Origin: a virus | DNA length: 41,580 nucleotides | Reading direction: 5' to 3' (one strand) | IMG/VR virus record: IMGVR_UViG_3300047471_000628 | Location: 1-41,580 of that record | Part shown: positions 13,399 to 20,916 of the stretch, one piece after another | Layout of the letters: each line of letters opens with the position of its first letter | Numbering within the stretch: the stretch's first letter is position 1 | The notes under the pieces: model-generated | What the model saw: only the letters and a program-made list of their open reading frames with translations | What the model was told of the DNA's origin: nothing | Database searches by the model: none | Made by a program: the position numbers and the translations under genes

Positions 13399-13935
13399 TC
13401 ACCTCTTCGGCGCTGCCTCGGTCGGGGGCGGCTTTGGCGTCATCTCCACGGTAAAGGCAATCCGTTGCCCGTTGGCATAGACCACGACATGGGCCTTGCC
13501 ATCGGTCCCCGGCACGATGGCTTCCGGCGGGATCACGATGGGGTGGCTCGCGAACGGCGGTAGTCCTTGGGCGGGATAGATTGGCAGCACAATCGGATGC
13601 TCAGGCTGGCCTGGTCCAACCGCATCAGGCGGGATTACAATCGGGTGTTGTGGATACACAGGTATATAAATCGGATGGGATGGCAGACCCGGTCCGATTG
13701 CATCCGGAGGCAGAACGATTGGATGGCCGGGATACACCGGCAGATAGATCGGGTGCGACGGCAGGCCAGGACCAATGGCATCTGGTGGGATCACGATCGG
13801 ATGTGCTGGCCGGTCGCTACTGATGCCGTAGCCAGGATCAACCGGACCCTCGACGCCAGGCAGCTCATTGCCGGGATAGCCGCCGCTCATCCCCTCGACG
13901 TTCAAATACCCGCCCATGACGTGAACCCGTGCCAT
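13399..13935 (-). CDS. Pro-rich tandem-repeat protein (HPI repeats)
   Basis: A 178-residue protein starting MARVHVMGGYLNVEGMSGGY. It then carries about four copies of an approximately 25-residue unit built on HPIVxPPDAxGPGxPxHPIY and PVYP. It ends in a short beta-like domain (KAHVVVYANGQRIAFTVEM). The start is set by GGAGG seven bases upstream. The repeats suggest an extended polyproline rod. It lies just after the Acb2-like gene. The role is unknown; a virion or surface fibre-like function is possible. Confidence 0.75.
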   Translation of the reverse strand: MARVHVMGGYLNVEGMSGGYPGNELPGVEGPVDPGYGISSDRPAHPIVIPPDAIGPGLPSHPIYLPVYPGHPIVLPPDAIGPGLPSHPIYIPVYPQHPIVIPPDAVGPGQPEHPIVLPIYPAQGLPPFASHPIVIPPEAIVPGTDGKAHVVVYANGQRIAFTVEMTPKPPPTEAAPKR

Positions 13936-17891: not shown

Positions 17892-18145
17892 GGCCGCCCT
17901 CCCAATGTCACCACATAAATCCGCCGCCCACGCCCCACCCCGCGCGTCTCGGTCGCAATGCCAGCCTCATCCAGCGCCCGCCGGATCTGCCGCCCGCCCT
18001 CACTGCTGCTGATGCCCAGAAACCGCGCCATCCAGTTGGCCGATGGCACCCGGCAGCCAGGCGTCAGGCGTGGCAATATCCAGCGCTCGATCTTGGCGCG
18101 GTGACGCCGCCCCTCGGGACGCCCACAGTTGTGTGTGATGCTCAT
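17888..18145 (-). CDS. Winged-helix DNA-binding protein
   Basis: An 85-residue basic protein (IERWILPRLTPGCRVPSANW, then GISSSEGGRQIRRALDEAGI and GRRIYVVTL) consistent with a winged helix-turn-helix. The ATG at 18145 follows GGGAGA. The frame stays open upstream to a GTG at 18484 that overlaps the previous stop (GTGA), which would add an N-terminus encoded by the tandem array. The short form is the safer call. It lies directly before the replication gene, a position like that of lambda CII. Confidence 0.7.
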   Translation of the reverse strand: MSITHNCGRPEGRRHRAKIERWILPRLTPGCRVPSANWMARFLGISSSEGGRQIRRALDEAGIATETRGVGRGRRIYVVTLGGRP

Positions 18146-18321
18146 GGCACATGTCTCCCTAGACAGCCGTAGGAGCCTGTGCGAAAAGGAGGTGCACACC
18201 TGCTTCTCGCCGCTCTCCCGCGGCATGGTTCCAGTTACAGTCGAGCCTCGGTTCCCGCCGGGGCTCGTCTCGTTTCTACCCTGGAAATGCGTGAGTCGGA
18301 AGGGGCGCCGCTCTCTCGTTT

Positions 18322-18483
18322 CGGTACTCTCACGCCCCGCGGCTCGCTCGATCCACTCGGCACTCTCATCGTCAACGGCTCGCTCATCTCCGACGGTACT
18401 CGCGGTCGTGTCGGCTCGCTCCGTATATACGGTACTCTCCGCACCCACGGCTCGCTCGCAAGACTTGGTACTCTCAACGGTCA
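18322..18483. repeat. Array 1: nine 18-bp units, two alternating boxes
   Basis: Units start every 18 bp from 18322: a conserved 10-base box, alternately CGGTACTCTC and CGGCTCGCTC, then eight variable bases. A decayed unit may precede it (18304). The array begins at the stop codon of the Transposase_20 gene. Several frames are open through it. On the minus strand it reads as RVPxxxSEPxxx or ESTxxxERAxxx hexapeptides. Confidence 0.9.
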
Positions 18484-19347
18484 CGGCTTTAGTCCCGGCA
18501 CGAGGTGGGCGTTTGGAACCTCGATGCGATGCACATGCCCCCCGACATGGTCGAGCACGTAGGGTTTTGGCGGCCGTTCCCCATACGTCACGAAAAACAG
18601 CACCTCATGGAAATGGCTCAGGAATATCTTGACGGCATAGCGTTGCGTCCGAAGATGAATGCGCGCAGGCGGTAGCTTGCCGGCGAGATAGTGCTTCTTC
18701 GCAGCCGTATCGTCGCCGAACCGCTTGGCCGTGAGCGAGGCGGCAGCCTGCTCGGCGTAGTCACCAGCTTCATTGCGCGCGATCTCACGCTCTTTGCGCT
18801 GCTGGTAGAGCTTGCCGTACGTGTCATCGGGGTGGTTGGAAACCTTGGTGAAGCTCTCCCCAACTATCCAGCACAGGCGCTTGAGCGACGCATTCCACGG
18901 GCGCTTGGTGCCCTTGTCCCATTTGACCGTCGGATCGAGGCCGCAGAACCGCCAGATGTGGCCGACGGTCGGGGCTTTGGCGATGTCGATATGAGCGAGG
19001 AAGCCCGCGGTTATGACTGGGCCGATGCCGACGATGCTGCGCATCCAAACGCCAGCAGGCTGACCAGCACCATAGACATCGAGCGCGGCTTTGATCTGGT
19101 TCTCCAGCGTCTGCTCTTGGGTGAACAGCCAGGCGATGGTGTCGTGCGGCTCCGGGGCTTTGTCGTCGGTCGCCTGCGACAGTGTGCGGACCTGGTGGGC
19201 GGATCGGATGCGGTCTTCCTGGATCTTGTAGTAGGCGTCTACCAGGAAGCGTGCTTCCGCTGGGCCTAGCGTGCGTGACGCCTCGCGCAGATCCTTTGTC
19301 AGTTTCTGGATGGGCGTCAGTAGTGACGGGTCTACATGGTCACTCAT
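18481..19347 (-). CDS. Transposase_20 (IS110-like HhH) domain phage protein
   Basis: A 288-residue protein. Residues about 100-190 match the Transposase_20 (IS116/IS110/IS902 C-terminal) domain: SIVGIGPVITAGFLAHIDI with a helix-hairpin-helix GIGP, then GHIWRFCGLDPT and KRPWNASLKRLCW. The DEDD nuclease domain of true IS110 transposases is absent; the N-terminus is instead helical. Similar phage proteins are common and are unlikely to be transposases; a DNA-binding role in replication or recombination is more probable. Both ends abut tandem arrays: array 2 runs up to its start and array 1 begins at its stop. The start overlaps the upstream gene by eight bases. Confidence 0.8.
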   Translation of the reverse strand: MSDHVDPSLLTPIQKLTKDLREASRTLGPAEARFLVDAYYKIQEDRIRSAHQVRTLSQATDDKAPEPHDTIAWLFTQEQTLENQIKAALDVYGAGQPAGVWMRSIVGIGPVITAGFLAHIDIAKAPTVGHIWRFCGLDPTVKWDKGTKRPWNASLKRLCWIVGESFTKVSNHPDDTYGKLYQQRKEREIARNEAGDYAEQAAASLTAKRFGDDTAAKKHYLAGKLPPARIHLRTQRYAVKIFLSHFHEVLFFVTYGERPPKPYVLDHVGGHVHRIEVPNAHLVPGLKP

Positions 19348-19531
19348 ATGCGCTCCGCTTGCATGGTACTCTCTGGCGGCCCGGCTCGCTCTCGGTCATC
19401 GGTACTCTCCGCAGCGACGGCTCGCTCATGCGCATCGGCACTCTCCTGGCCCGCGGCTCGCTCGCGATAGACGGTACTCTCCAGCAGATCGGCTCGCTCG
19501 GCGTTTGCGTTACCAGCGCCCACGGCTTCAT
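19340..19531 (-). CDS. SEP/RVP hexapeptide-repeat protein encoded by array 2
   Basis: A 63-residue basic protein starting MKPWALVTQTPSEP and continuing as alternating RVPxxx and SEPxxx hexapeptides. The ATG at 19531 overlaps the stop of the upstream membrane peptide (ATGA) and has GGAGGGGG nearby, and the gene ends eight bases inside the next one, so the operon structure supports translation. The frame is wholly built from the 18-bp array. A second frame (EST/ERA) is also open and ends in an ATGA overlap with the next gene, so the coding frame is uncertain. Confidence 0.55.
   Translation of the reverse strand: MKPWALVTQTPSEPICWRVPSIASEPRARRVPMRMSEPSLRRVPMTESEPGRQRVPCKRSAYE
19364..19507. repeat. 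Array 2: eight 18-bp units, same boxes as array 1
   Basis: Units start every 18 bp from 19364 and alternate GGTACTCTC-type and GGCTCGCTC-type boxes, each followed by eight variable bases. The orientation is the same as array 1. A decayed unit overlaps the start codon region of the Transposase_20 gene. No other copies of the boxes in this arrangement were noticed in the window. Confidence 0.9.
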
Positions 19532-19629
19532 CGCACCCCCTCCCCCATCATCACCACCAGCATCCACGTCGCGCCGAACGCCAACCCCCACGCACACACC
19601 GTCAGGGCAAGGGCGCGCAGCACCGTCAT
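19528..19629 (-). CDS. 33-residue membrane micro-protein
   Basis: A peptide with one transmembrane helix (VLRALALTVCAWGLAFGATW, then MLVVMM). The ATG overlaps the stop of the VRR-NUC gene and its stop overlaps the next ATG; both are ATGA. Precise coupling on both sides supports a real gene. Confidence 0.6.
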   Translation of the reverse strand: MTVLRALALTVCAWGLAFGATWMLVVMMGEGVR

Positions 19630-20138
19630 GCGGCCATGTCCGTGTATGGCCTCAAGGGCACGCCACAGGCCGTCAGGAACGCCAGCACGGCCGGCAGGCT
19701 GTCGCACACGGCGATCGTCAGCCCCGCGGCCTCAAGCACCGGGAAGGTCTCCCGCTGGCCTGCAAGCTCACGCAGCCCCCCGCGGCGGGTCCGCACGATC
19801 CTCGTCCGCGACAACTGGCCGCCAGGTCTTTTCAGCTCAACCCCATAGAGGCGCTGATGGAGCACGAAGATGTCCGGGAGACCCCGCTTTAGCCCAATCT
19901 CCGTGAGGCGCGCGGCCTGCGCCTTGGTCAGCTTGATGTGGCCGACCGGCATGGCGAACCACACCGCCGGCGGCAGCAGCAATACGTCGAGCCCGTGCCT
20001 GACTGTCGCCTGGATGTCTCTTTCCCGCGGGATGTCCTCCGTCAGCCGCCAGGCGCGGCCCGTGGTGACCCGCACCTCGGCCACCGCCGCGCCGCCAGAG
20101 ACGCGCATGGGCCGGTCATCGTCGCCGGGGGGGGTCAT
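19626..20138 (-). CDS. VRR-NUC domain nuclease
   Basis: A 170-residue PD-(D/E)xK nuclease of the VRR-NUC family. Visible catalytic pattern: GLPDIFVLH (Asp89) followed by GVELKR (Glu101, Lys103), with an upstream ERDIQATV helix (Glu39 region) usual for the family. Phage VRR-NUC proteins act as structure-specific nucleases in replication or recombination. The ATG at 20138 overlaps the Cro-like stop (ATGA). Confidence 0.9.
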   Translation of the reverse strand: MTPPGDDDRPMRVSGGAAVAEVRVTTGRAWRLTEDIPRERDIQATVRHGLDVLLLPPAVWFAMPVGHIKLTKAQAARLTEIGLKRGLPDIFVLHQRLYGVELKRPGGQLSRTRIVRTRRGGLRELAGQRETFPVLEAAGLTIAVCDSLPAVLAFLTACGVPLRPYTDMAA

Positions 20139-20371
20139 TCGGCCGCCATCCGTTGCCGCACCGGGAACAGGTCCGGCCGCAGCCGCCGCTTCGAGATGCC
20201 CGTGATACGGGCCACCACAGCAACGTGCCGCTCCGGCACCCGCCGCCACTGGCTCACCGCCGCCCTGGACACACCGAGGGCCTCAGCAATCTCCGTGACC
20301 GCCATGCGGGGGCTCAGCGCCAGCTCCAGGGCTGCGTCACGCTCGCCAGGCTGGAGAGGCCGGGGTGCCAT
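20135..20371 (-). CDS. Cro/YdaS-like repressor
   Basis: A 78-residue helix-turn-helix protein: VTEIAEALGVSRAAVSQWRR then PERHVAVVARITGISKRRLRPDLFP, the signature of Cro/YdaS-like phage regulators. It is the first gene of the leftward early operon and divergent from the CI-like gene, so it probably acts as Cro in the switch at 20372-20484. Confidence 0.88.
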   Translation of the reverse strand: MAPRPLQPGERDAALELALSPRMAVTEIAEALGVSRAAVSQWRRVPERHVAVVARITGISKRRLRPDLFPVRQRMAAE

Positions 20372-20484
20372 CAGCCTACCTTACGGTAAGAGCAGACGGG
20401 ATTACAATAGTGCGAATGAGTTGCTAAGGCAGGCTTAACTACGTTAACCTAGACACGCTGCCCAACCCGACTCTGAGGTGTATC
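20372..20484. promoter_or_regulatory. Divergent switch region (OR-like)
   Basis: The 113 bases between the Cro-like and CI-like genes contain two dyads: CTTAC-G-GTAAG (20389-20399) and TTAAC-TAC-GTTAA (20436-20448). A possible rightward -35 TTGCTA lies between them. The CTTAC half-site recurs in the dyad after the repressor gene (20962-20982), so these are likely operators. Confidence 0.65.
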
Positions 20485-20916
20485 GTGGATATGGACGTTG
20501 GCGATCGGCTGCGCGAGGCACGCGAGCATCTGGGAATGACGCAGAGCGAACTCGCCGCCAAGCTTGGTGTTCATGTCGCTACGGTGACGCTGTGGGAGAA
20601 CCGCAAGAACCGTCGCAAGGTCGCCACCAAGTATATACAGAAGATCGCGCAGGTTCTCAATATCCGAGTATCCGAACTGCTCGGTGAGGGCGCGGAACTA
20701 GCAATACCAGAACCGCCGCCCGCGCTGACGACGCGCGACAACGCCGAGTATCAGCTGCTGCGGCTGTTCCGGCTAATGCCAGAGAAACTGCAGTTGTTCC
20801 AATTGGCACAATTCGTTCAGTGCGTGACAGGCGGCCAAGGCAGTCAGTCGCTTAGCCATGAAATAAGCATCGATGGAGCGACCATGCAGAGCACCATTTT
20901 GGGCTTCGGTCGCTAG
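20485..20916 (+). CDS. CI-like repressor (HTH_3, no peptidase domain)
   Basis: A 143-residue protein. Residues about 5-65 are a Cro/CI helix-turn-helix (LREAREHLGMTQSELAAKLG, HVATVTLWENRKNRRK), followed by a Pro linker and a helical C-terminus that may mediate oligomerisation. No LexA/S24 peptidase motif is present, so RecA-induced self-cleavage is not expected. Start GTG 20485 has GAGGTG four bases upstream; ATG 20491 is equally possible with longer spacing. Confidence 0.85.
   Translation: MDMDVGDRLREAREHLGMTQSELAAKLGVHVATVTLWENRKNRRKVATKYIQKIAQVLNIRVSELLGEGAELAIPEPPPALTTRDNAEYQLLRLFRLMPEKLQLFQLAQFVQCVTGGQGSQSLSHEISIDGATMQSTILGFGR

What the first reader, a model, noticed from the sequence alone, without database searches (positions are those of the whole stretch)
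18304..19531. Two matching 18-bp-period arrays flank the Transposase_20 gene exactly
Array 1 (18322-18483, nine units) and array 2 (19364-19507, eight units) share two alternating 10-base boxes, CGGTACTCTC and CGGCTCGCTC, each followed by eight variable bases. Both have the same orientation and strict 18-bp spacing. Array 2 runs to the start of the 288-residue gene and array 1 starts at its stop. The boxes are conserved at every base, including wobble positions of all candidate frames, while the spacers vary freely. This points to a DNA- or RNA-level role: binding sites for the flanked helix-hairpin-helix protein, a recombination cassette, or a regulatory RNA. I know of no described element with this form.
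Basis: partly seen in the sequence, partly recalled or inferred. Interest (0 to 1): 0.82.

Follow-up and report, generated by a model that had tools for sequence, protein, structure and literature searches.

The report
Phage TIGR-Tas guide-RNA system (TasA type)
The two repeat arrays around this phage gene are banks of short paired guide sequences for a known kind of RNA-guided DNA-binding protein (TIGR-Tas, described in 2025), here in a form with no DNA-cutting domain whose targets are still unknown.

Summary
The arrays and gene are a TIGR-Tas locus (Faure et al. 2025, PMC12045711). The 288-residue protein hits NCBIfam TIGR_Tas_endo at 209.9 bits (cut-off 100). Its nearest solved relatives, by sequence and fold, are TasR and TasH. 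It lacks their N-terminal nuclease, so it is a TasA. On the gene's strand the boxes are the edge repeat GAGCGAGCCG and loop repeat GAGAGTACCG, with 8-nt spacers. Array ends in relatives keep exactly half an edge repeat (AGCCG at the 5' end, GAGCG at the 3' end). That predicts the published 36-nt tigRNA: AGCCG-8-loop-8-GAGCG. All 133 arrays in the 52 loci with a measured tas gene lie on the tas strand. Spacers shift frame and loops vary non-synonymously, so the arrays are not coding. One new result: the two spacers around a loop are inherited together (113 joint vs 45 half-matches between phages) while those across an edge are not (28 vs 192), as expected if each tigRNA is one functional unit. 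A target search found no self-targeting and only a weak, unproven excess in related phages. New member of a known kind; what TasA does in the phage stays open.

The parts
18484..19347 (-). tasA: Nop-domain Tas protein, 288 aa; stop TGA at 18481-18483
   Evidence: NCBIfam NF052498.1 209.9 bits vs cut-off 100; PDB profile hits TasR 9mty E 1.7e-24 and TasH 21kl E 3.1e-13; fold match; no HNH/RuvC Pfam domain in any of 46 relatives
19351..19527 (-). Upstream TIGR array (array 2): 5'-truncated edge AGCCG (19523-19527), one degenerate first unit (loop remnant about 19508-19514), four canonical units, 3'-truncated edge GAGCG (19351-19355)
   Evidence: terminal-repeat profiles
18309..18488 (-). Downstream TIGR array (array 1): 5'-truncated edge AGCCG (18484-18488, inside the last codons of tasA), five units, 3'-truncated edge GAGCG (18309-18313)
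   Evidence: terminal-repeat profiles
18340..18349 (-). Example edge repeat GAGCGAGCCG (others start at 18376, 18412, 18448, 19382, 19418, 19454, 19490)
   Evidence: type assigned because the half-repeats at array ends are this type in 97 (5') and 79 (3') array ends
18466..18475 (-). Example loop repeat GAGAGTACCA (others GAGAGTACCG/GAGAGTGCCG/GCGAGTACCG/GAGAGTACCA start at 18322, 18358, 18394, 18430, 19364, 19400, 19436, 19472)
18453..18488 (-). First predicted 36-nt tigRNA of array 1: AGCCG TGACCGTT GAGAGTACCA AGTCTTGC GAGCG
   Evidence: inferred from the break point of terminal edge repeats between positions 5 and 6 and the 36-nt length in PMC12045711
19353..19356 (-). GGAG at the junction of last spacer and 3'-truncated edge, 5 nt before the tasA ATG: probable Shine-Dalgarno of tasA
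   Evidence: sequence; the same GGAGCG or a near variant before the ATG in L068, L057, L050, L023, L020, L081, L080, L086

Best explanation
The locus is a TIGR-Tas system of the nuclease-free TasA type in a tailed-phage genome. Proposed working: the two arrays are transcribed with tasA on the - strand. The precursor is cut in the middle of each edge repeat (GAGCG^AGCCG) into 36-nt tigRNAs. A TasA dimer binds each tigRNA through the shared GAG...CCG ends of the edge and loop repeats (box D and box C). The two 8-nt spacers of one tigRNA pair with opposite strands of the same short DNA site, which TasA opens and bends without cutting. The likeliest use is to block transcription or replication of other mobile DNA at that site. 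Shown here: membership, array anatomy, strand coupling, absence of a nuclease domain, co-inheritance of the two spacers around a loop. Inferred from the published TasR/TasH/TasA work: processing, RNP formation, tandem DNA binding. Guess: the purpose (about 0.4).
For: NCBIfam TIGR_Tas_endo E 4.4e-62, 209.9 bits vs cut-off 100. PDB profile search: TasR 9mty first, TasH second, IS621 third; Foldseek gives TasR/TasH at E about 5e-6 and then IS110-type recombinases (model pLDDT 85.5). Alternating 10-nt repeats with 8-nt spacers fit the published definition. Array ends hold only edge positions 6-10 (5') and 1-5 (3'), giving 5+8+10+8+5 = 36 nt. Arrays on the tas strand in 133 of 133 cases; a downstream array within 300 bp of the tas stop in 39 of 52 loci, upstream within 300 bp in 31. 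The spacer pair around a loop is co-inherited, the pair across an edge is not.
Against: No rho-independent terminator was found on the guide strand after array 1, though the paper says arrays typically have one. No target was identified. Foldseek TM-scores to TasR/TasH are moderate (0.5-0.6). The NCBIfam model name says 'endonuclease', but this protein has no nuclease domain, so the name overstates it.
Confidence: 0.93

Rival explanations
1. The arrays are protein-coding hexapeptide repeats (- strand RVPxxxSEPxxx, or + strand GTLxxxGSLxxx).
For: In the window alone all box variants are synonymous in the RVP/SEP frame and all frames through the boxes are open.
Against: In the family 7-, 9- and 10-nt spacers break the frame, and loop position 6 varies over all four bases, which is non-synonymous in that frame. 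Arrays start and end at half-repeats next to tas start and stop codons.
Confidence: 0.01
2. The arrays are DNA binding sites or iterons (replication or regulatory) for the flanked protein, not guides.
For: Regular 18-bp spacing like phage iterons; they lie in the early region beside a primosomal gene.
Against: The protein belongs to an RNA-guided family. Two box types alternate strictly and differ only in their middle. Spacers are mostly unique and pairwise co-inherited around the loop box, which a spacer in an iteron has no reason to be. Array strand always equals gene strand.
Confidence: 0.02
3. It is an IS110-type transposable element with flanking bridge-RNA-like sequence.
For: Weak Pfam Transposase_20 match, 21.5 bits vs cut-off 21.3; distant similarity to IS621; PHROG 4285 is labelled 'transposase'.
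Against: IS110 NCBIfam model scores 23.9 vs a cut-off of 140; no DEDD domain; arrays of many units instead of one bridge RNA.
Confidence: 0.02
4. Same system, other purpose: tigRNAs regulate the phage's own genes or aid its own replication or integration.
For: TasA has no nuclease; the paper proposes regulation and help to integrases as options.
Against: Of 1083 distinct units, none has a site with at most 1 mismatch in its own contig at gap 0, and 2-mismatch self hits are at background (20 units; comparable control cells 15-30). Many contigs are fragments, so this is not proof.
Confidence: 0.2

Closest known systems
TIGR-TasA (Faure et al. 2025, PMC12045711; Flavonifractor plautii FpTIGR)
   Same: Solo Nop-domain protein with dual-repeat array(s); arrays up- and downstream; truncated edge repeats at array ends; a 36-nt unit is predicted here
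   Different: Spacers are 8 nt rather than 9 nt (the paper allows exceptions and reports 16 nt in total for SpTIGR); repeat ends GAG...CCG instead of the TasR UG...CCA; no terminator found
SpTasH (Salicola phage, PMC12045711) and the PDB TasH structures 21kl, 9vzx, 9w02-9w04
   Same: Phage-borne; 16 nt of spacer in all reported for SpTIGR, as here; the solved TasH chains share the homologous Nop core
   Different: TasH carries an N-terminal HNH nuclease; the window protein does not
TaTasR (9mty)
   Same: Best sequence and fold relative
   Different: TasR has an N-terminal RuvC domain; the window protein starts at the coiled coil
TasA-TasParB operons (PMC12045711)
   Same: TasA with dual-repeat arrays and 10-nt repeats
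   Different: No ParB_N match over the family cut-off in any of the 33 records searched, the window included; two weak sub-cut-off matches elsewhere
IS110/IS621 bridge-RNA recombinases
   Same: Distantly homologous Nop core
   Different: No DEDD domain; arrays instead of a single bridge RNA

Membership tests
TIGR-Tas | Tas protein with Nop domain | tested here: met
   NF052498.1 209.9 bits, cut-off 100; TasR/TasH best PDB matches by sequence and fold
TIGR-Tas | Two alternating 8-12-nt repeats with short spacers (9 nt, some exceptions) | tested here: met
   10-nt edge and loop repeats, 8-nt spacers; 2125 loop/edge steps at 8 nt across the family
TIGR-Tas | Array adjacent to tas, upstream and/or downstream | tested here: met
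   Window: both sides. Family: downstream within 300 bp in 39 of 52 loci, upstream in 31 of 52
[quoted passage not shown]
   97 5' ends keep only positions 6-10; 79 3' ends keep only positions 1-5
TIGR-Tas | Rho-independent terminator after the array | tested here: not met
   None on the guide strand in 17900-20500; described as typical, not as obligatory
TIGR-Tas | 36-nt processed tigRNAs | not testable with these tools
   36 nt predicted from the anatomy; needs small-RNA sequencing
TIGR-Tas | Tandem-spacer binding to opposite DNA strands | tested here: inconclusive
   Co-inheritance of the spacer pair around the loop supports a paired function; target search did not establish targets
TasA subtype | No HNH or RuvC domain | tested here: met
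   No such Pfam match in 46 members; the alignment to TasR starts at chain residue 121 and to TasH at 94
TasA-TasParB | Operon with ParB-like gene | tested here: not met
   No ParB_N match in the window
IS110 transposase | DEDD domain plus Transposase_20 | tested here: not met
   23.9 bits vs cut-off 140 for NF033542.1; no DEDD match in Pfam

The most novel reading that the evidence does not exclude
In this phage clade TasA is a non-cutting weapon between related phages. Arrays turn over by exchanging whole tigRNA units at edge repeats, and the guides aim at homologous sites (including tasA itself) in rival phages while avoiding the carrier's own copy. Hints: 18 units match related phages at the predicted geometry with at most 1 mismatch, against 4-14 in control cells; self matches are zero; two unrelated guides hit tasA of the window's clade.
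Probability: 0.15. Interest if true: 0.75.

Novelty: new member of a known kind. Interest (0 to 1): 0.35.

Why it matters
The system class is known, but the discovery paper states that natural targets, spacer origin and the role of nuclease-free TasA are open. This clade gives over a thousand distinct dual-spacer units in related phages, a sharp predicted cleavage point (GAGCG^AGCCG), and a clear evolutionary signal that the spA-loop-spB unit is what is inherited. It is a good comparative set for those open questions. It also shows that PHROG 4285, labelled 'transposase', matches all 46 Tas proteins aligned here.

Tried and rejected
(1) Protein-coding repeats: tempting in the window because all box variants are synonymous in one frame; rejected on family data. 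(2) Spacers tracking synonymous change in coding targets: mismatches between homologous units show no 3-base phase (within-half distances mod 3 of 27:17:15 for remainders 1:2:0, about the 25:19:15 expected without phase). (3) Self-targeting: at background in fetched loci and in the larger set of nearly whole contigs. (4) Cross-phage targets: gap-0 excess at 1 mismatch disappears at 2 mismatches (145 units, within the control range) and there is no perfect match at gap 0; treated as suggestive only. (5) IMG/VR scans for three recurrent guide pairs gave 17, 22 and 53 stretches vs 16 for a mispaired decoy; the hits do not share one homologous gene and none carries tas or an array. (6) Hosts: a genome-contig scan found one array-bearing contig, a 7.2-kb 'Proteobacteria' MAG contig (L102), probably phage. 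(7) No tblastn relatives in INPHARED or PLSDB.

Full report
What is there. On the - strand, the strand of the 288-codon gene, the two boxes read GAGCGAGCCG and GAGAGTACCG. They alternate strictly and are separated by 8 variable bases. Array 2 (19351-19527) lies upstream of the gene and ends in GGAGCG, whose GGAG sits 5 nt before the ATG. Array 1 (18309-18488) starts within the last two codons, with the TGA stop inside its first spacer. The same two-box pattern occurs in 92 stretches of IMG/VR, holding hundreds of arrays. A homologue of the 288-aa protein is found by tblastn in most of those loci. In the 52 loci whose gene could be measured, 133 arrays lie on the gene's strand and none on the other.

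What it is. NCBIfam recognises the protein as TIGR_Tas_endo at 209.9 bits, twice the curated cut-off. A profile of 46 family members finds TasR (9mty, E 1.7e-24), TasH (21kl, E 3.1e-13) and then IS621 among solved structures. The AlphaFold model (pLDDT 85.5) puts TasR and TasH first by fold, then IS110-type recombinases. No member carries an HNH or RuvC Pfam domain, and the aligned region begins after the nuclease part of TasR and TasH. This is therefore the TasA form.

Fit to the definition. The discovery paper (PMC12045711) describes two alternating 8-12-nt repeats, short spacers (9 nt with exceptions; 16 nt in all for SpTIGR), arrays up- and/or downstream of tas, a 5'-truncated edge repeat at the start and a 3'-truncated one at the end, and 36-nt tigRNAs that start and stop in the middle of the edge repeat. 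All anatomical points are met except the terminator. The array ends in this family are informative. In 97 arrays the 5' terminal repeat keeps only positions 6-10 (AGCCG), and in 79 arrays the 3' terminal repeat keeps only positions 1-5 (GAGCG). The break lies exactly between positions 5 and 6, and 5+8+10+8+5 makes 36. This identifies GAGCGAGCCG as the edge repeat and GAGAGTACCG as the loop repeat. The one typical feature missing, a terminator after the array, was looked for on the guide strand and not found.

Not coding. In the window alone the box variants look synonymous in one frame (RVPxxxSEP). Over the family, spacers of 7, 9 and 10 nt break any frame and loop position 6 takes all four bases. 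Positions shared by both repeats are GAG.G..CC plus a final G or A, which fits the paper's statement that the box D and box C ends covary between edge and loop repeats because they bind a symmetric dimer.

An evolutionary signal. Between phages that are not near-identical, spacer pairs flanking a loop are shared as a pair 113 times (59 exact, 54 with 1-2 mismatches), against 45 times for one partner alone. Pairs flanking an edge repeat are shared 28 times against 192 halves. Shared units usually keep their own loop variant and appear in different neighbourhoods. Window and L068 share 89% of tas nucleotides but only one of nine units each. So the tigRNA unit, bounded by edge repeats, is what is inherited and reshuffled. 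The paper leaves the origin and turnover of spacers open. Counts include clusters of related phages and are not independent events.

Targets. The order spA then rc(spB) was derived by me from the reported 8-nt 3' overhangs and the C-5 rule. With arrays masked, 1083 distinct units were searched in about 1.75 Mb of carrier and related DNA. At gap 0 and at most 1 mismatch, no unit hits its own contig. 18 units hit related phages (other gaps, orders and mispaired decoys: 4-14) and 50 hit unrelated ones (19-53). The excess vanishes at 2 mismatches, so this is a hint at most. Listed hits include tasA of the window's clade, hit by guides from G007/G027 and from L087. IMG/VR scans for three recurrent guide pairs did not converge on a target.

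Context. The window is a virus record of 41,580 bases with portal, terminase, major head, tail and ejection genes. The TIGR locus lies in the early - strand cluster, next to a phrog_824-like gene on one side and a DUF1376 primosomal gene on the other. No ParB gene accompanies it.

Verdict.

Noticed in passing
window 18484-19347; phrog_4285: PHROG 4285, annotated 'transposase, integration and excision', matches all 46 Tas proteins aligned here; the label appears wrong for this family.
   Followed up: yes
window 18833-18848 and 18521-18536: Guide pairs of other phages (G007/G027 unit TGGTTGGA/ACAAGGTT; L087 unit TCGATCCG/ATGTGCAT) match tasA of the window's clade with one mismatch at the predicted tandem geometry.
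   Followed up: partly
L023:9092-10048, L030, L051 and others: Several TasA relatives are about 25-45 residues longer (313-332 aa), L023 (319 aa) through an insertion relative to the window protein; its role was not examined.
   Followed up: no
window 19351-19356; also L068, L057, L050, L023, L020, L081, L080, L086: The 3'-truncated edge repeat at the end of the upstream array also seems to be the Shine-Dalgarno of tas (GGAGCG or a near variant just before the ATG).
   Followed up: partly
window 13652-13803: A 78-bp direct repeat, 1.9 copies, 75% matches, in a + strand open frame.
   Followed up: no
L102 (JAJYTL010000167.1): The only array found in the genome collection: a 7.2-kb contig of a 'Proteobacteria' MAG with array sequence at its end, probably a phage contig in the bin.
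   Followed up: partly
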